A program made the position numbers and the translations under genes. The notes below the pieces were generated by a model, which ran no database searches, was not told the origin of the DNA, and worked only from the letters and a program-made list of their open reading frames with translations. A stretch of 64,000 nt of DNA, taken from Anaerobutyricum hallii (lineage in GTDB: Bacteria > Bacillota > Clostridia > Lachnospirales > Lachnospiraceae). The stretch lies in assembly GCF_900209925.1 (NCBI RefSeq), contig NZ_LT907978.1:170001-234000 (forward strand). Reading direction: 5' to 3'. Positions 26,278 through 34,517 of this stretch are shown piece by piece (position 1 is the stretch's first letter; each line of letters opens with the position of its first letter).

Positions 26278-27846
26278 ATGAAACTAGATGAGACGAAGAG
26301 ACAAAAGATTGTACATCCGATACCGCCTCTTTATGATAAAGATTCAAAAATTTTGATATTGGGAAGTTTTCCATCGGTAAAATCCAGAGAAGAGGCATTT
26401 TTTTACGGGCATCCTCAGAATCGTTTTTGGAAGCTTTTGGCAGGTGTTTTTTCTGAGAATAAACCGGAAACGATAGAGGAGAAAAGAGAATTTCTTCATA
26501 AAAATCATGTAGCTGTATGGGATGTTATCCACAGTTGTGATATTATTGGTTCATCGGATAGCAGTATTCGTAACGTGGTTCCGAATGATTTATCTGAAAT
26601 ATTAGAGAATGCAGATATTAAACAAATATTTTGTAATGGTGCAAAGTCGTATGAGTACTATAGAAAGTATCAAGAGAAGGAAACGGGTAGAAAAGCGGTA
26701 AAGCTGCCTTCAACCAGTCCGGCTAATGCAGCTTTTTCTATAGAGAAACTTACAAGAGCGTGGAAGGAAATTTGTGTTCCGTTGCAGGTAGCACCAACAG
26801 GAATTGGCGAGGTTTTACTGAATTGGTATGATTATAATGCAAGAATTTTACCATGGAGAAGTGAGCCAACGCCATATCATGTGTGGATTTCAGAGATTAT
26901 GCTGCAACAGACTAGAGTAGAAGCAGTGAAAAAATATTATGACCGTTGGATGGAAGTGCTGCCGGATGTGAAGGCATTATCTGAAGTTCCGGATGAAGAA
27001 CTTATGAAGTTGTGGGAAGGGCTTGGTTATTATAATCGAGCAAGGAATTTAAAGGCTGCTGCACTCCAGGTGATGAAGGAGTTTAATGGGAAAATTCCGG
27101 CAGATTATTCAAAACTACTATCTCTTAAAGGCATAGGAGAATATACAGCAGGTGCGATTGCATCGATTGCATTTGGAATTCCGGAACCGGCAGTAGATGG
27201 AAACGCTCTTCGAATTTTTTCAAGAATTCTTGCTGAAGATGGTGAAATAAATAAAGCTTCGGTTAAAAAGAAAATAAGTCAGGAAGTGCGACGGGTATTG
27301 CCGAAGGAACATCCGGGAGACTTTAATCAGGCGTTGATGGATTTAGGTTCTTCGATTTGTATTCCAAATGGAGAACCATTTTGTGAGAATTGCCCATGGG
27401 AGTCTATCTGTCAGGCACATAAATATGGACGGGAAACAGATTTTCCAGTGAAAGCGAAAAAGAAACAGAGAAAAATTGAAAAAAAGGCTGTATTTTTAAT
27501 AGAAGTATCTGATAAGATTATTTTACACAAAAGGGCAGAGAAAGGGCTTTTAAGTGGATTATGGGAATTGCCTAATCTTGATGGCGAGCTTTCTGCAAAA
27601 GAGTTATCTGAACAGATGAAAAAATGGGAAATCGGAGATTATATGATAGAGCCATTGGGTGAAGGAAAGCATATTTTTTCTCATGTTGAGTGGCAGATGA
27701 GGGGATATCGTCTTCAAATGAGAGATATTTCAGAGAAACTTTTAGAAAAGGAAGAATGGATTGCCGTATCAAGAGAAGATTTAGAAGAAAAATATGCAAT
27801 TCCTTCAGCATTTGAATGTTATCGGAAACAAATTTATCGGGGATAG
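26278..27846 (+). CDS. mutY: Fused hypoxanthine-DNA glycosylase / A/G-specific adenine glycosylase MutY
   Basis: 522 residues in two enzymes. Residues 1-175 match the DNA-deoxyinosine (hypoxanthine) glycosylase family of the uracil-DNA glycosylase superfamily: KILILGSFPSVKSREEAFFYGHPQNRFW and the C-terminal LPSTSPANA. Residues ~178-522 are MutY: catalytic Glu215 in LQQTRVEAV, helix-hairpin-helix LLSLKGIGEYTAGAIA, catalytic Asp307 in AVDGNALR, a 4Fe-4S site (Cys361, 369, 372, 378) and a C-terminal NUDIX-like 8-oxoG recognition domain. MutY removes A opposite 8-oxoG; the N-terminal part would remove hypoxanthine from deaminated A. One continuous frame, no gap, so the fusion is genuine in this sequence. 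Start spacing is not decisive, since no strong ribosome site is seen. Confidence 0.88.
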   Translation: MKLDETKRQKIVHPIPPLYDKDSKILILGSFPSVKSREEAFFYGHPQNRFWKLLAGVFSENKPETIEEKREFLHKNHVAVWDVIHSCDIIGSSDSSIRNVVPNDLSEILENADIKQIFCNGAKSYEYYRKYQEKETGRKAVKLPSTSPANAAFSIEKLTRAWKEICVPLQVAPTGIGEVLLNWYDYNARILPWRSEPTPYHVWISEIMLQQTRVEAVKKYYDRWMEVLPDVKALSEVPDEELMKLWEGLGYYNRARNLKAAALQVMKEFNGKIPADYSKLLSLKGIGEYTAGAIASIAFGIPEPAVDGNALRIFSRILAEDGEINKASVKKKISQEVRRVLPKEHPGDFNQALMDLGSSICIPNGEPFCENCPWESICQAHKYGRETDFPVKAKKKQRKIEKKAVFLIEVSDKIILHKRAEKGLLSGLWELPNLDGELSAKELSEQMKKWEIGDYMIEPLGEGKHIFSHVEWQMRGYRLQMRDISEKLLEKEEWIAVSREDLEEKYAIPSAFECYRKQIYRG

Positions 27847-28855: not shown

Positions 28856-29632
28856 ATGAAATTCAGACCATGTATCGATATACATAATGGAAAAGTGAAA
28901 CAGATTGTCGGTGGCAGTCTTTTAGATAAGGGAGATTATGCAAAAGATAACTTTGTTTCAGAAAAAGATGGAGATTTTTATGCCGGATTATACAAAGATG
29001 CCGGACTAAAAGGGGGGCATATTATTCTTTTAAACCCAGCCGGAAGCCAGTATTATGAGGAAGATGTCAGACAGGCCTGCCTGGCGCTTTCGGCTTATCC
29101 GGGAGGACTTCAAATCGGAGGTGGGATGACAGCGGATAATGCGGCATTTTTTCTGGAAAAAGGAGCATCCCACATCATCGTGACTTCCTATGTTTTTAAA
29201 GATGGAAAGATTAATTATGAAAACCTTAAAAAAATTGTCGCAGTAACTGGAAAAGAACATCTTGTTCTTGACTTAAGCTGTCGAAAGAAAGGTGAAGATT
29301 ATTATATCGTCACAGACCGTTGGCAGAAGTTTACCGATGTGAAACTTACAGAAAATGTATTATCTGAACTTGCAGAGTATTGTGATGAATTTCTTGTACA
29401 TGCAGTAGATGTAGAGGGAAAAGCAGGTGGAATCGAAGAAGATATCGCTGCCTTACTTGGCAATTGGGATGGAATCCCGGTAACCTACGCAGGAGGGGTA
29501 AGCTCCTTTGAAGATTTAAGAAAGTTAAAAGAACTTGGGAAAAATAAAGTGGATGTAACCATTGGAAGTGCCCTGGACTTATTTGGCGGGAAGATGCCAT
29601 TCTCCAAAGTGTTAGACGAGATTAAATACTAA
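28856..29632 (+). CDS. hisA: Phosphoribosylformimino-5-aminoimidazole carboxamide ribotide isomerase, eukaryotic type
   Basis: Isomerises ProFAR to PRFAR in histidine synthesis; TIM-barrel enzyme. The 258-residue sequence opens FRPCIDIHNGKVKQIVGG (catalytic Asp in the first strand) and has LQIGGGMTADNA and TYAGGVSS phosphate-binding turns. The overall pattern matches the HIS6 form found in yeast and plants and in some Firmicutes, rather than the standard bacterial HisA. It stands alone, with no other his gene in the window. AAAGGGACAGTTT precedes the ATG. Confidence 0.88.
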   Translation: MKFRPCIDIHNGKVKQIVGGSLLDKGDYAKDNFVSEKDGDFYAGLYKDAGLKGGHIILLNPAGSQYYEEDVRQACLALSAYPGGLQIGGGMTADNAAFFLEKGASHIIVTSYVFKDGKINYENLKKIVAVTGKEHLVLDLSCRKKGEDYYIVTDRWQKFTDVKLTENVLSELAEYCDEFLVHAVDVEGKAGGIEEDIAALLGNWDGIPVTYAGGVSSFEDLRKLKELGKNKVDVTIGSALDLFGGKMPFSKVLDEIKY

Positions 29633-29645
29633 TTTATGAGGCGAA

Positions 29646-29998
29646 AGAGACGAAAATAAAAAGAAGAGACCATCGCAACTGTAAAGATATCGCTGCGTAG
29701 AAAATGCCTGTTCGGCATTTTTACTTGCTCCCACATTACATTTGCGATGGTCTCTTCTTTTTATTTTCTGTGCTTTGGCTCCACAAAGAATGTATTCAAT
29801 AATCTTTGGGAGAGAGAGGGGAGGGGACAGAAGATCGTGGCTTATTCTTATTCTGTCCTTCTGGAGCCAAAATACAGAAAAAAGAAATACTGTCCTATCC
29901 CAGATGCGGCTTCGGAGCGAGTTTAAGATGCGGATGAGCATCTTAAACACAGCGACTACAGAGCAGATGGGATAGGACAGTATTTCTTTTTTCGTCTG
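29646..29998. repeat. Nested palindromic element A, copy 1 (about 350 bp)
   Basis: Composite element between the convergent hisA and cbiG genes. Short terminal inverted repeats AGACGAAAA (29648-29656) and TTTTCGTCT (29989-29997) enclose: a left hairpin with 27-bp perfect arms (29652-29678 / 29742-29768); a middle stem TGTGCTTTGGCTCCA / TGGAGCCAAAATACA (29769-29783 / 29862-29876) tipped by GGACAGAA/TTCTGTCC; and a right hairpin with 25-bp perfect arms (29878-29902 / 29968-29992) containing an inner GTTTAAGATGC/GCATCTTAAAC stem. The second copy is at 33022-33645. It could also terminate transcription from both sides. Confidence 0.85.
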
Positions 29999-30013
29999 TT
30001 CCAAATCTACAGA

Positions 30014-31066
30014 TCAAGAGTTCTCTTTTGACAAGGCAATTGTGATTCCTTTGTACTTTGCTTTATCCCGCAAAATAGTGCCTTTGTCGGATGCCAGATA
30101 AGAACAGGCTGTGGAAACAGATAGGACTCCCGTCTGGCTGGCAACGAATTCGGAAGTCTGAATACCGAGCTGACTGATATCCAGATTTTCGATTTCTTCG
30201 GTAGGTATAATCTGTAATGGTACATTTAAATTTGCGGCGGTTCCAATAATTCCGGGTTCATCGGATTTCAGTGGGATGGTTGCAATACATTTTAGAGAAA
30301 GAGGGTGAATTCCCTCTTCTTTTAATGTCTGTAAAAGTGCCTCCTCAATCGGTTTTTGTTCCATATTTCTCTTGCAGCCGATGCCGGCGCAGATAGTGCG
30401 TGGGCGGAGATAGAGAACTGGAGCTGCCTGTGGAACAGTGGAGTTTGATACAAAAAGCCTCTCATCAATTACTACAGCCGGAATATTGGATTCAATAGTA
30501 TAGGTTTTGAAAAACTCGGAGAGGGGTAAAATAGCAATCATTCCCCGTTTCTGCTCTGCTGCTAATTCCGGATAAAGTTCCGCAGCATTTTTATCGGTAA
30601 AGACGTTTACTTTCTTCCCGGAAAGCAACGCACCGCTGATATGTTTTAACTGTCCGATGTTCTCAATTGCCATATCGTGTTTTTTTGCAAAAGTGTCAAA
30701 AGAAAGTTCGCCTGCTACATCGGTTGCGGTAGTGATGACAGCTTCGCCACCGGAAATGACAGCCATTTCACGAGCGAGGTCGTTCGCTCCTCCAAGATGT
30801 CCGGAAAGGAGACTGATGGCATATTTTCCTTTCTGATCTAAAACGACAACCGCCGGGTCACTCGTCTTATGTACAATTAGCGGGGCAAGAATACGCACAA
30901 CGATTCCTGTTGCCATGATGCAGATAAGTGAATCGTATTTGCCAAAGCCTGCTTGCAGATTTTCTTTAAAATTTTCTTTATTATAAATATCACCGGGATG
31001 AGCGGCAGCCAGTTTGTGAGCAAGTCTTCCGCCTTCATCGGTGAGGTAAAAATAAGCGGTGTTCAT
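30014..31066 (-). CDS. cbiG: Cobalt-precorrin-5A hydrolase
   Basis: Opens the lactone ring of cobalt-precorrin-5A and releases acetaldehyde in anaerobic cobalamin synthesis. 350 residues; the ICIMATGIVVRILAPL segment, LLSGHLGGANDLAREM, TTATDVAGELSFD and the C-terminal CAGIGCKRN / SVSTACSYLAS blocks are characteristic of CbiG. AAAGGATTTATTT precedes the start on the reverse strand. It is separated from the main cobalamin operon (46861 onward) by alpha-glucan and other genes and runs the opposite way. Confidence 0.95.
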   Translation of the reverse strand: MNTAYFYLTDEGGRLAHKLAAAHPGDIYNKENFKENLQAGFGKYDSLICIMATGIVVRILAPLIVHKTSDPAVVVLDQKGKYAISLLSGHLGGANDLAREMAVISGGEAVITTATDVAGELSFDTFAKKHDMAIENIGQLKHISGALLSGKKVNVFTDKNAAELYPELAAEQKRGMIAILPLSEFFKTYTIESNIPAVVIDERLFVSNSTVPQAAPVLYLRPRTICAGIGCKRNMEQKPIEEALLQTLKEEGIHPLSLKCIATIPLKSDEPGIIGTAANLNVPLQIIPTEEIENLDISQLGIQTSEFVASQTGVLSVSTACSYLASDKGTILRDKAKYKGITIALSKENS

Positions 31067-31094
31067 AAATAAATCCTTTCGTTTGCTATAAATA

Positions 31095-31124
31095 TACCCC
31101 CACTACGGTTTGGCAATGGGGGTA
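31095..31124 (-). terminator. Hairpin between ybaK-like gene and cbiG
   Basis: TACCCCCA (31095-31102) pairs with TGGGGGTA (31117-31124). Read on the reverse strand it follows the ybaK-like gene and is trailed by TATTTATA, a weak T-rich run; it may be a leaky terminator. Confidence 0.5.
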
Positions 31125-31145
31125 ACTATTATACAATAGTTGTTG

Positions 31146-31637
31146 TTAATCTAAAGATACCAGTGTCACATCATGCTCATGTTCTTCGAGAATACGGATT
31201 AAGTCTTCTGTTTTCAGCCATACAGTAGCAGTATTATCATTTGGATGAACTCCGACAAGACCCGGTTCTTCAAGAAAATGCTTATCGAGATAAAAATGTA
31301 CTTTCTTTTCCGTATCATTTAAGATGCCAAGAGGTGTTACAGCACCAGGGATAAGCCCCATAATGTCCATAAGATTTTCTTCAGAAGCAAAACTTAGAGG
31401 ACGGGTTCCATTGGCTTTACGAAATTCTTTTAAATTGACACGCTTGTCTCCACGAACAGTGATAAGATAAAAGTTTTTCTTTTTATCATCGCGTACGAAA
31501 AGATTCTTTGCATCGGCCTCCGGATATGGAATATCAACTTCTGCAAGTTCCGCCATGTTATAAACTGCTTTATGCTCTGTAATCTCGTGCCAGATATTAT
31601 TTTCTTTTAAATACTTATAAATGTCCTGTTTATTCAT
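31146..31637 (-). CDS. YbaK/ProX-type aminoacyl-tRNA deacylase
   Basis: 163 residues. The pattern AKNLFVRDDKKKNFYLITVRGDKRVNLK, LSFASEENLMDIMGLIPGAVTPLGI and GVHPNDNTATVWL matches the ProX (PrdX) branch of the INS/YbaK editing domains, which hydrolyse mischarged Ala-tRNA-Pro. A free-standing editing domain usually complements a prolyl-tRNA synthetase that lacks its own. Strong AGGAGG precedes the start. Confidence 0.9.
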   Translation of the reverse strand: MNKQDIYKYLKENNIWHEITEHKAVYNMAELAEVDIPYPEADAKNLFVRDDKKKNFYLITVRGDKRVNLKEFRKANGTRPLSFASEENLMDIMGLIPGAVTPLGILNDTEKKVHFYLDKHFLEEPGLVGVHPNDNTATVWLKTEDLIRILEEHEHDVTLVSLD

Positions 31638-31681
31638 AATAGAGAATCCTCCTGCTCAATTTTTATATATTAGTGTTTTTT

Positions 31682-32374
31682 CTATTGTATTAGAGCGTGT
31701 TCTAACTCTCTCTTTTTCCAGCTCACAAATCCGTACATATCATTTAAAAGAAAAATTGCAAAATTTACTACAACAGGGATGTAGGCAGGGTTTTCAAGTG
31801 AGGCAAGCACCCAGAGTACAATTAACACGATATCGTTTGCGGCATATCCCATAGCGTAGTATGAAGAACGCAGCATAGTAAGTGATGCTGCAACAAAACT
31901 TGTTACAATAGACAAGGTACTGAATATAATATTTGGTGTATCCAGCCACATAAGGATATAATAAAAAATACTCGTAACGATAATTGTGCTGATAATTAAT
32001 CCAATGATATGTTTTTTATTTAATGTTTGAATTGCTACTTCGTTTTCATTTTCTTCGGATGGGTTTTGAAGCCATGTGATCGCTGACCAGACAGCCATCG
32101 GCAGAGTCATTCCAAGATAGGTGATCATTTCTCCCCAGTAGTGGAAACGGAAAGAAATGATACCATATAAAATGCAGAAAACAATCATCAGAAACTGTGC
32201 CCAGACACTTCCCTTTGCAGCAAAAATCAGTGAAGTGACACCGAGGAGTGCCGAGATTAATGTAAGCAAATCTAAATCATTCGTTGCAAGATTTGAAATG
32301 ATTACAGCAGCGAGGGAGGCAAGCCAGAGCAGCCATTCCTTTTTTGTCAATGTTTTTAATGGGTTACTTAACAT
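31682..32374 (-). CDS. pnuC: PnuC-type nicotinamide riboside transporter
   Basis: About 230 residues with seven or so membrane helices (for example WLLWLASLAAVIISNLA, WAQFLMIVFCILYGIISF, IVLIVLWVLASLENPAYIPVVVN). The PnuC signature regions WGEMITYLGMTLP and INDMYGF-like (LNDMYGFVSWKKRE) are present. The ATG at 32374 overlaps the end of the nitroreductase gene by 11 bases; an in-frame ATG at 32428 would lengthen the protein by 18 residues. It imports an NAD precursor. Co-transcribed with the nitroreductase. Confidence 0.85.
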   Translation of the reverse strand: MLSNPLKTLTKKEWLLWLASLAAVIISNLATNDLDLLTLISALLGVTSLIFAAKGSVWAQFLMIVFCILYGIISFRFHYWGEMITYLGMTLPMAVWSAITWLQNPSEENENEVAIQTLNKKHIIGLIISTIIVTSIFYYILMWLDTPNIIFSTLSIVTSFVAASLTMLRSSYYAMGYAANDIVLIVLWVLASLENPAYIPVVVNFAIFLLNDMYGFVSWKKRELEHALIQ

Positions 32375-32891
32375 AGAAAACACGATTTTCTTTTCTTGCT
32401 GGAGCAGCAGGATACTCTCCATCAACATAACCTAACGCGCAGTGGCCGATTCCCTCATATTCCCCTTCAATACCTAAAGATTTCAGGAAATTTTTACCCC
32501 AATCGGATTCAAATTCTTCTTTCGCGCGGTGAATCCAACAGCTTCCGATTCCAAGTTCATGAGCTGCAAGCATAAGGTTGCCCATTACAAGGCTGCCGTC
32601 ATATACATAGGTTGGACGGCTCTTTTTAGCAAGAACAATCAACATGGCAGGTGCACCGTAAAATGGGTCAAAACCTTCTTTCCAACCACCAATCTCGCAG
32701 TTCATTTTAGAAATTTCATCACGTAATTCTTTCTTAGTAACCTGAATGATAATAGGAGACTGCTCGCCCATTCCGCTTGCCGCATAAAGCCCCGCTTCAA
32801 TAATCTGATCTAAAACTTCCTGCGGAACCATATCCGATTTAAATTTACGGATACTTCTTCTTGTTTTCATTTTATTTAATACGTCACTCAT
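32364..32891 (-). CDS. Nitroreductase family protein
   Basis: 175 residues. KTRRSIRKFKSDMVPQEVLDQIIEAG is the typical FMN-binding N-terminus, and GLYAASGMGEQSP and LAAHELGIGSCWIHRAKEEF complete the fold. The chosen ATG follows AGGAGG; the longer frame upstream has none. FMN-dependent, NAD(P)H-using; physiological substrate unknown. Overlap with pnuC links it to nicotinamide supply. Confidence 0.92.
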   Translation of the reverse strand: MSDVLNKMKTRRSIRKFKSDMVPQEVLDQIIEAGLYAASGMGEQSPIIIQVTKKELRDEISKMNCEIGGWKEGFDPFYGAPAMLIVLAKKSRPTYVYDGSLVMGNLMLAAHELGIGSCWIHRAKEEFESDWGKNFLKSLGIEGEYEGIGHCALGYVDGEYPAAPARKENRVFYVK

Positions 32892-33021
32892 AATTTTCCT
32901 CCTTAAAAATTTATATTCATAGGGTTCTTTATATTTTGCTAGTAAAAATGTTACCCTACAATTATAATCGGACATTTATCGTAACGCAACAGGATTTTAC
33001 TATTTAATTCATTTGGGGGAA

Positions 33022-33645
33022 ACAGACGAAAATAAAAATAATAGACAATAACAAATGTAAAGATATCACTGCGTAGAAAATGCCTGTTCGGCATTTTTAC
33101 TTGCTCTCACATTACATTTGTTATGGTCTATTCTTTTTATTTTCTGTGTTTTGGCTCCAAAAGGAATGAATTCAATAGTCTTGGGGGAAGAGAAGGGGAG
33201 AAGTCAGGAGTCTACTGCTTACTCTCTTCGCTATACTGAAGCTTTTTTCAAGTTTCACTGATGATAAGATGATACTACAGGCTATCGCTGTACATGATGT
33301 ATTTATCATTATGTTGTCACAATATATTATTTTTCTTGACGTATGTCATGCGTTATATGATGCACATCTCGTAGCAAGATAACTCTAAAGGTGACTACTT
33401 TAATTTCTCAGGAAAAGACAATCCACTTTATTTTTACTGTTCGTTAAACTAAGCTTCTGACGATACATCTTCCGAGCAAGCAGTAGTCTTCTGATTTCTC
33501 CCCCTTCTGGAGCCAAAACACAGAAAAAAGAAATACTGCCATATCCCAGATGCGGCTTCGGAGCGTGTTTAAGATGCGGATGAGCATCTTAAACACAGCG
33601 ACTACAGAGCAGATGGGATATGGCAGTATTTCTTTTTTCGTCTGT
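33022..33645. repeat. Nested palindromic element A, copy 2 (about 620 bp)
   Basis: Terminal inverted repeats ACAGACGAAAA (33022-33032) and TTTTCGTCTGT (33635-33645) are perfect. The left hairpin has 33-bp arms with two mismatches (33028-33060 / 33112-33144); the middle stem TGTGTTTTGGCTCCA/TGGAGCCAAAACACA is perfect here; the right hairpin has 25-bp perfect arms (33524-33548 / 33614-33638). Compared with copy 1, three base pairs in the left hairpin and two in the right are changed on both sides so pairing is kept. The middle stem is extended by AGAAGTCAG..CTACTGCTT paired with AAGCAGTAG..CTGATTTCT and encloses about 260 bases absent from copy 1. Confidence 0.85.
33341..33382 (+). repeat. Small hairpin repeat, copy 4 (degenerate, inside element A)
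   Basis: Shares TATGTCATGCGTT with copy 3 and CATCTCG.AGCAAGA with copy 1. It lies in the extra DNA at the tip of element A copy 2, so one repeat is nested in another. Confidence 0.4.
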
Positions 33646-33647
33646 CT

Positions 33648-34517
33648 TTAACATCGATACTTTCTTGGTGAAACGCCATATTTCTTTTTAAAGGATCTGT
33701 TGAAGTAAGAAATATTATTAAATCCGGTAGCAATTGCAATATCCAAAATAGTATCAGTTGTTGTGGTGAGTAACTCGGCGGCAATTTCCAGGCGATAATC
33801 GTTAAGGTATTGAATAAAGCTTATTCCCATAGTTTCTTTGAAAAATTTCATAAAGTAGGACTTACTGTAAAAGCAATAATTTGCGATATCTTCAATCGTA
33901 ATATTTTCCTGAAAATTGTCGGCGATATAGGATAATATCGTCTTTATTTTTTTGAGAGATTTTTGGTTGATTGGTTTGATTTTATTTTGCCCACAATTTG
34001 AAACCAGAGTATATAGTATCTGAAATAAATGTGCTTTGACAGATAGCTGGTAAGCGTAAGGGCGTAAATCACACAGGTGATCGATTTCGTTAATGGCGGT
34101 GATGACTGGAGAATAATATGGAGTCTGGTTATTGATTACCGGGCAGATATTAAGGCTGCCTGAAAAAAGTGGCTGAATGAATTTATCGCTGCATAAGTCA
34201 TAACCGGATGATTTTAAGAGACTGGATTTGAACAGGATATTTTCATATTCCATAATCTCATTGTCTTTTTGGCTGATGGAATGAAGCTGTCCGGGGAGAA
34301 CAAAGATAATGTCTCCGGCACTGACAGAATAGGTGGTTAAGTCTACACTGACAATACCGATTCCTTTTTTTATAACAATAATTTCGACTTCATCGTGCCA
34401 GTGAAGGTTTACCGAATGAAAGTCTAGGGGGATGGAACAAAGATAAGTGTTGTATGGAAAATCGTCTGGAGTATGTGTTTTATTTTCGTGATATATTTTG
34501 TATTGAAGTTTATCCAT
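33648..34517 (-). CDS. AraC-family transcriptional regulator
   Basis: About 289 residues. The N-terminal cupin (LHWHDEVEIIVIKKGIG, DIIFVLPGQLHSI) binds a small ligand, probably a sugar; the C-terminal two helix-turn-helix units are clear (ITIEDIANYCFYSKSYFMKFFKE and ILDIAIATGFNNISYFNRSFKK, ending YGVSPRKYR). ATG at 34517 is preferred over 34544 because AGGAA precedes it at good distance. It is divergent from the glycogen phosphorylase gene and may regulate it; the target is not shown by the sequence. Confidence 0.9.
   Translation of the reverse strand: MDKLQYKIYHENKTHTPDDFPYNTYLCSIPLDFHSVNLHWHDEVEIIVIKKGIGIVSVDLTTYSVSAGDIIFVLPGQLHSISQKDNEIMEYENILFKSSLLKSSGYDLCSDKFIQPLFSGSLNICPVINNQTPYYSPVITAINEIDHLCDLRPYAYQLSVKAHLFQILYTLVSNCGQNKIKPINQKSLKKIKTILSYIADNFQENITIEDIANYCFYSKSYFMKFFKETMGISFIQYLNDYRLEIAAELLTTTTDTILDIAIATGFNNISYFNRSFKKKYGVSPRKYRC

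What the first reader, a model, noticed from the sequence alone, without database searches (positions are those of the whole stretch)
29646..33645. Pair of large nested-palindrome elements with compensatory stem changes
Elements at 29646-29998 and 33022-33645 share terminal inverted repeats (AGACGAAAA), two long hairpins with 25-33 bp arms, and a middle stem TGTGYTTTGGCTCCA. Between copies five base pairs are changed on both sides so pairing is kept, and one copy carries 260 extra bases at the tip of the middle stem. They flank the reverse-strand cbiG-ybaK-pnuC-nitroreductase block. They may be non-autonomous mobile elements (MITE-like), large structured RNAs, or both; the fold resembles a multi-way junction.
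Basis: seen in the sequence. Interest (0 to 1): 0.75.

Follow-up and report, generated by a model that had tools for sequence, protein, structure and literature searches.

The report
Giant self-homogenising gene-end DNA palindromes
Two gut bacteria carry large families of long DNA palindromes just behind the stop codons of genes, and each species seems to have overwritten shared sites with its own version, leaving a pattern that imitates a conserved RNA structure.

Summary
In detail: both elements, their hairpins, the middle stem and five doubly changed pairs are confirmed. They belong to a very large family: one hairpin core type alone has 193 matches in this genome, control 0; in the genus it was found here and in A. 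hallii only (2 of 24 genomes).

The unit is a hairpin tagged GACG on one side: a long variable stem round a conserved core, starting about 50 bp behind stop codons, singly or as inverted pairs round a spacer. The 260 'extra' bases are that spacer; copy 1 is shortened.

Stems covary strongly, but G-T and A-C mismatches are about equal (35, 27), unlike tRNA stems (15, 1), and three copies have palindromic cores. That favours arm copying in DNA over RNA selection.

Sites are mostly shared with A. hallii (13 of 16 anchor ends), yet in 8 of 9 hand-picked comparisons modules are closer to same-species copies: concerted evolution.

Nearest known are CGTC-tagged REPs, but stem, loop and tail differ. 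No mobiliser was found; terminator function is inferred.

The parts
29627..29651 (+). copy 1, degenerate left outer arm (TACTAATTTATGAGGCGAAAGAGAC), overlapping the hisA-like stop codon at 29630-29632; GACG tag at 29649-29652
   Evidence: compare type II left arms
29652..29768 (+). copy 1, 5' hairpin: 33-position arms around a conserved core (core model match 29667-29753, +)
29769..29783 (+). copy 1, left half of middle stem (TGTGCTTTGGCTCCA)
29784..29861 (.). copy 1, shortened spacer
   Evidence: copy 1 is second shortest of 30
29862..29876 (+). copy 1, right half of middle stem (TGGAGCCAAAATACA)
29877..29993 (-). copy 1, 3' hairpin: a module of the same build in inverted orientation (core match 29892-29978, -)
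29994..30018 (+). copy 1, rest of the CGTC tag (29993-29996) and right outer arm (CAAATCTACAGATCAAG, 30002-30018), overlapping the cbiG-like stop at 30014
33028..33144 (+). copy 2, 5' hairpin (core match 33043-33129, +)
33145..33159 (+). copy 2, left half of middle stem (TGTGTTTTGGCTCCA)
33160..33507 (.). copy 2, long family spacer with its own inverted arms (33195-33224 / 33474-33503)
33508..33522 (+). copy 2, right half of middle stem (TGGAGCCAAAACACA)
33523..33639 (-). copy 2, 3' hairpin, inverted module (core match 33538-33624, -)
33640..33646 (+). copy 2, rest of the CGTC tag (33639-33642) and GTC; right outer arm absent, araC-like stop codon at 33648 follows

Best explanation
These are two members of a clade-restricted family of large DNA palindromes built from one unit: a hairpin tagged GACG on one side and CTG on the other. 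Units sit alone or as inverted pairs round a spacer, close behind stop codons, in the position of intrinsic terminators. SHOWN: copy number, 3'-end position, conserved core, covariation without wobble excess, sites shared by two species with species-specific sequences. INFERRED: (1) the long stem with A-tract and T-tract arms ends transcription from both sides, so the sites are kept; (2) arms stay complementary because replication copies one arm from the other (template switching in a hairpin), so compensatory pairs arise as single DNA events; (3) copies within a genome overwrite each other, by gene conversion or by repeated element-for-element replacement, giving each species its own subfamily. 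How the family first reached so many sites (an extinct or unrecognised mobiliser, or copying by recombination) is unknown.
For: 193 matches of one core type with up to 3 mismatches, control 0; modules in G000 and G003 and in none of 39 other relatives, with strict filters and at most 108 candidates scored per genome. In long stretches (own and A. hallii together) 17 of 30 module-bearing intergenic regions are convergent against 26 of 254 others (p = 2e-8); over all fetched pieces 65 convergent, 70 tandem, 16 divergent; median distance of the outermost core 48.5 bp to a 3' end (n = 200) against 162 bp to a start (n = 102). Where one species has a module the other can have a short hairpin-plus-T-run terminator (own 1397366, hallii 13009, two sites, by eye). 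Covariation: 412 of 1453 cells changed on both sides, 0 of 500 shuffles as high. 228 modules x 15 bp: 3312 Watson-Crick, 35 G-T, 27 A-C, 46 other mismatches; tRNA acceptor stems 110, 15, 1, 0. Three copies have both core halves perfectly complementary, two templated one way and one the other. Module at the matching hallii anchor end: 13 of 16 when own has one within 450 bp, 9 of 106 when it has none, p = 2e-9, ends of one site not independent. Identity at shared sites 34-74% in 8 of 9, best same-species copy 85-96% in hallii. Both window sites carry modules in G003.
Against: No transcript, termination or conversion event was observed. 16 of 151 regions are divergent, which termination does not explain. 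The near-invariant core (mean major-base frequency 0.96 v 0.84 in arms) needs selection or a protein that arm copying does not supply. Palindromic cores are rare: 3 loci by exact patterns of one core type in G000, none in G003. Only two genomes were compared, one fragmented. One of the 9 sites (1204393 = C111:37311) is 99% identical and shows no replacement. 3 of 16 own anchor ends lack a hallii module, and at 9 anchor ends hallii has a module and own has none, so sites are also gained or lost. The best of many paralogues is compared with the best of 1-4 counterparts, which favours paralogues.
Confidence: 0.6

Rival explanations
1. Active non-autonomous transposons (MITE- or REPIN-like) that insert behind genes, moved by a transposase elsewhere in the genome.
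For: Inverted outer arms, inverted module pairs, high copy number and species-specific subfamilies; anchor ends with a module in one species only: 3 own, 9 hallii; Y1 transposases present, 7 matches in the own genome.
Against: No constant target duplication or clean empty site in the sites read. Most compared sites are shared by both species. Y1 matches occur in 16 of 24 genus genomes although the element was found by DNA in 2 of 24. R2 modules lie in 4 of 12 loci round Y1 genes; in L236 they bracket an IS605-like unit together with a yqeY-like gene (name recalled), in L229, L231 and L240 they lie on one side only. No match in plasmids or phages by BLAST or in viral contigs by two exact patterns.
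Confidence: 0.22
2. A conserved structured RNA or RNA regulatory element, selected for its fold in the transcript.
For: Very strong folding and covariation, conserved core, position behind genes where it would be transcribed.
Against: No wobble excess (35 G-T v 27 A-C) while tRNA stems show one (15 v 1). In the window only rRNA and tRNA reach an Rfam threshold; in five element-bearing loci only tRNA does. Module replacement at shared sites and spacer inversion.
Confidence: 0.1
3. Plain host terminators that converged in sequence by selection alone, with no copying between sites.
For: Terminator position and A/T-tract arms.
Against: Cores, including unpaired positions, are near-identical over 116 distinct modules, subfamilies differ between species at shared sites, and spacer stretches of 60-250 nt are shared between 19 of 30 elements: common descent by copying rather than convergence.
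Confidence: 0.04

Closest known systems
CGTC-tagged REPs (Di Nocera et al. 2013, PMC3733652; abstract, found passages and sections 6 and 15 read)
   Same: CGTC/GACG at one end of a hairpin, inverted dimers with structured spacers, position just behind ORFs and between convergent or unidirectional ORFs, no associated transposase.
   Different: Published units have 8-9 bp stems, 4-5 nt loops and mostly a CCA tail; here the outer stem beyond the core has quartiles of 20, 20 and 25 bp, the core is about 60-82 nt, the other end reads CTG, and elements reach 346-918 bp. The paper's text holds 'Eubacterium' and 'hallii' 0 times.
REPINs with RAYT transposases (PMC3116915, PMC8049555: search listing only)
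   Same: Two inverted hairpin units round a spacer, sequence populations inside one genome.
   Different: GTAG tag, short units, and a RAYT gene flanked by the repeats (PMC3733652 for the tag and the association); none was found here.
MITEs (PMC10969869, search listing only; otherwise recalled)
   Same: Non-coding, inverted outer arms, many copies.
   Different: No target duplication or parent transposon found; sites shared between species while sequences turn over.
BOX (pneumococcus), EFAR (Enterococcus), bcr1 (Bacillus cereus group); recalled, papers not read
   Same: Structured, intergenic Gram-positive repeats (recalled).
   Different: No sequence comparison was made; sizes and modules as recalled differ.
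Template-switch maintenance of RNA hairpins (PMC8794818; abstract and opening read)
   Same: Proposes that DNA template switching creates compensatory pairs and mends stems in one event.
   Different: Described for RNA genes; here it would act on repeats that show no sign of RNA-level selection.

Membership tests
CGTC-tagged REP | CGTC/GACG tag at one end only | tested here: met
   GACG in a 13-nt window at the left stem end in 179 of 228 modules (own 159 of 195, hallii 20 of 33), CGTC at the right in 2 of 228
CGTC-tagged REP | stem of 8-9 bp and loop of 4-5 nt | tested here: not met
   outer stem beyond the core has quartiles 20, 20, 25 bp; core of about 60-82 nt inside
CGTC-tagged REP | CCA tail | tested here: not met
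   CTG in the 13-nt window at the right end in 201 of 228; CCA itself was not counted
CGTC-tagged REP | close to 3' ends, between convergent or unidirectional ORFs | tested here: met
   65 convergent, 70 tandem, 16 divergent; median 48.5 bp to 3' ends
CGTC-tagged REP | inverted dimers predominate among dimers | tested here: met
   49 of the 54 two-module regions are + then -; 92 of 151 regions hold a single recognised module
REPIN/RAYT | RAYT-type Y1 gene flanked by the repeats | tested here: not met
   12 loci round Y1 genes of G000 and G003 searched with R2: modules in 4 (L229, L231, L236, L240); only in L236 on both sides, with a host gene enclosed as well; 12 of the 13 Y1 matches of the two genomes were covered
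REPIN/RAYT | GTAG tag | tested here: not met
   GTAG near the left end in 31 of 228
MITE | terminal inverted repeats | tested here: met
   outer arms on both sides in 24 of 30 delimited elements, counted by eye
MITE | target-site duplication | tested here: inconclusive
   no constant direct duplication in the 30 elements or in the two-species sites, read by eye; no clean empty site available
MITE | parent transposon with the same ends | tested here: inconclusive
   eight regions with outer-arm matches away from known copies were read: six hold further elements, two only arm-like sequence; one search listed 100 of 138 matches and the genome was not read whole
Structured RNA family | wobble pairs preferred over other mismatches | tested here: not met
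   35 G-T v 27 A-C, binomial p = 0.37; tRNA control 15 v 1
Structured RNA family | known Rfam family | tested here: not met
   window: only rRNA and tRNA at gathering threshold; five loci at E up to 5: only tRNA above threshold; best other mir-556, E 1.2e-4 but 40.5 bits against a threshold of 84
Intrinsic terminator | terminates transcription | not testable with these tools
   no RNA data; position only. The simple terminator scan did not list the hairpins; its rule allows loops of 3-8 nt followed by T

The most novel reading that the evidence does not exclude
A self-perpetuating family of gene-end palindromes that spreads and renews itself by being copied: between arms (template switching) and between sites (gene conversion over existing terminators), with no transposase at all. 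It would be a selfish terminator that replaces host terminators, and a natural source of perfect covariation that imitates RNA structure.
Probability: 0.25. Interest if true: 0.8.

Novelty: new variant of a known kind. Interest (0 to 1): 0.57.

Why it matters
It adds a much larger, composite repeat that behaves like REP/REPIN repeats, in a butyrate-producing gut genus. It gives a practical warning: near-perfect covariation, often taken as proof of a functional RNA fold, can come from DNA arm copying, and the ratio of G-T to A-C mismatches helps to tell the two apart. It makes testable how a bacterial genome homogenises hundreds of dispersed sites, and whether such repeats take over terminators and seed rearrangements.

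Tried and rejected
Autonomous parent: eight regions with outer-arm matches away from known copies were read. Six hold further elements, two only arm-like sequence beside other hairpins. The pair at 3179229/3179499 is a small single-hairpin element; between it and the arm at 3183638 I recognised no transposase-like ORF (by eye, no family search). The Y1/TnpB unit lying between two hairpins in A. hallii (L236) at first looked like an autonomous form; a yqeY-like gene (recalled name) lies between the same hairpins, so it was dropped.

Known RNA families: matches other than tRNA are all below their gathering scores (best: mir-556, 40.5 bits against 84) and were set aside as AT-rich hairpin matches.

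Mobile carriers: no match in viral contigs (two exact patterns), plasmids or phages.

Wider taxa: model R2 matched 1 of 299 family genomes, the own one. That search scored only 14 candidates per genome with strict filters, so distant relatives could be missed; (R1) also used strict filters.

TSD: a TWA triplet flanks many type I arms, but left and right versions agree about as often as not (read by eye), so it is not claimed.

Weak points of counts. Modules for the mismatch test had to reach 9 of 15 Watson-Crick in the best of seven registers (232 found, 228 kept), which favours pairing but not G-T over A-C; related copies are not independent. A first tRNA control with a poor register gave G-T 18, A-C 3, other 7; the corrected one is. 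In one search two of the five measures were only weakly above the shuffles (pairs with a double change 22 v 19.7, 11 of 500; further pair types 60 v 56, 35 of 500), and alignment A5 had been fitted to the model. Genes for one search are heuristic ORFs, 12 modules at piece ends were dropped, and most pieces were chosen because they hold elements; the test on long stretches lessens that bias. The nine site comparisons were chosen by hand among sites with modules on both sides; some lie at synteny breaks, where only one flank is shared.
Full report
WHAT IS THERE. The window lies at C1:170001-234000 of a 3.5 Mb genome. Copy 1 fills the gap between the stops of a hisA-like gene (29632) and a convergent cbiG-like gene (30014). 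Arms, middle stem and the five doubly changed pairs are confirmed; three further pairs changed on one side only. By model search the window holds four modules, those of these two elements.

A LARGE FAMILY. BLAST of copy 1 in the own genome gave 191 matches. Thirty elements with both end modules were delimited, 346-918 bp long. The 5' and 3' hairpins are modules of one build in opposite orientation: a long stem, a conserved asymmetric loop (TAGTCGCTG / CGCTCCGAAGCC in the commonest type) and an inner hairpin. One core type alone has 111 forward and 82 reverse matches with up to 3 mismatches, control 0. A second outer-arm set (CTGATTTGTAGATTT...AAATCTACAAATCAG) is common, and copy 1 has a decayed form of it. 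G003 contains a 20,437-base contig of the length that names as A. hallii DSM 3353, so the window is taken to come from Anaerobutyricum.

POSITION. With heuristic genes, 151 module-bearing intergenic regions are 65 convergent, 70 tandem and 16 divergent (12 modules dropped at piece ends). In long stretches of both species 17 of 30 are convergent, against 26 of 254 regions without a module (p = 2e-8). The outermost core lies a median 48.5 bp from a neighbouring 3' end (n = 200) and 162 bp from a 5' start (n = 102). Of 54 regions with two modules, 49 have them as + then -; 92 regions have one recognised module. With the stem arms added, many elements begin almost at the stop codon.

DNA OR RNA. 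In 54 modules, 93.9% of cells pair and 412 of 1453 cells are changed on both sides, which no shuffle of 500 reached; two of the five measures were only weakly above shuffles, and the alignment was fitted to the model. Taken alone this looks like a textbook RNA. But a transition in a Watson-Crick pair gives G-T or A-C with equal chance, and only pairing in RNA favours G-T (reasoning from base pairing). Over 228 modules and the first 15 stem pairs there are 35 G-T and 27 A-C (p = 0.37), whereas 18 tRNA acceptor stems from the same fetched DNA give 15 and 1 (Fisher p = 0.007). Three copies in the own genome have lost the core asymmetry, two from one half and one from the other; none in G003 by the same exact patterns (first seen in L229). 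Spacers are inverted in 7 of 19 elements that hold them. Template switching between hairpin arms would explain all three facts; it is described in PMC8794818 (abstract and opening read), PMC7202029 and PMC8604942 (search listing only).

SITES STAY, SEQUENCES CHANGE. Own stretches were compared with 195 kb of G003 (C111); aligned blocks of 250 bp or more are 75-98% identical. Of 122 anchor ends, 16 have an own module within 450 bp, and 13 of these have a hallii module at the matching end; of the 106 without, 9 do (p = 2e-9; the two ends of one site are not independent). Yet in 8 of 9 hand-picked comparisons the modules are only 34-74% identical across species, below their flanks, while the hallii ones find a same-species copy at 85-96% and the own ones at 68-98%. 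The ninth (1204393 = C111:37311) is 99% identical. At 100760/1257683 the two modules are neighbours rather than true counterparts, which explains the 34%. The window sites behave alike: G003 has a single module of its 97-nt type between hisA and cbiG (L266), and upstream of the nitroreductase an inverted pair of such modules inside outer arms TTACTATTTAATTCATT...AATGAATTAAACAG (L272); 8 loci found for these genes in other relatives (one, L275, a weak match) had no module. Some synteny breaks coincide with modules: own 1379135 and 1479301, 100 kb apart, meet at one hallii hairpin (C111:138033-138230), and own 1129508 and 1278465 meet at another pair (C111:23129-23586).

HOW IT MOST LIKELY WORKS. 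Shown: abundance, position, DNA-type covariation, palindromic cores, species-specific homogeneity at shared sites. Inferred: the units serve as two-way terminators, are kept palindromic by arm copying, and are homogenised by copying between sites. Unknown: how they first spread, and why the core is conserved (mean major-base frequency 0.96 in the core, 0.84 in the arms, 116 distinct modules). A core-binding protein or a selfish amplification source are both possible.

KNOWN KIND. The behaviour is that of REP/REPIN repeats, nearest the CGTC-tagged REPs, which also lack a transposase and also sit behind genes (PMC3733652). Stem length, loop size and tail fail that definition, so they are not filed as members but as a new, larger variant of palindromic extragenic repeats. 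Searches for an earlier description (Anaerobutyricum or Eubacterium hallii with repeat, palindromic, MITE, inverted repeat, terminator, rearrangement terms) showed none among the rows listed (20, 12, 12 and 10 of much longer hit lists); the library holds open-licence papers only.

Noticed in passing
window 26278-27846 (+): One 522-aa ORF looks like a uracil/hypoxanthine-type DNA glycosylase fused to a MutY-type adenine glycosylase (recalled from the translation, not searched).
   Followed up: no
G000:C1 1378400-1379140 and 1479301-1479900 against G003 C111:138033-138230: Rearrangement endpoints 100 kb apart in the own genome coincide with palindromic elements and meet at a single hairpin in A. 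hallii.
   Followed up: partly
G000:C1 410640-413260: One element appears to be split by transposase-like DNA; different transposase-like DNA abuts a half element at 3061930 (by eye, not searched).
   Followed up: no
G000:C1 1257568-1257770 against C111:100739-100913: The same long stem survives in A. hallii with its core deleted, and a stem pair differs on both sides between the species (by eye).
   Followed up: partly
G000:C1 1196434-1197214, 315200-316330 and downstream of 2589752: Spacers of some elements share another stretch with inverted ends (TTGATTTTGTTCYGTTGCGCYAAACGCT ... GCGCAAAGTCACAAAATGCAATACTTATAA, whole or in part), perhaps a separate small repeat family (by eye).
   Followed up: no
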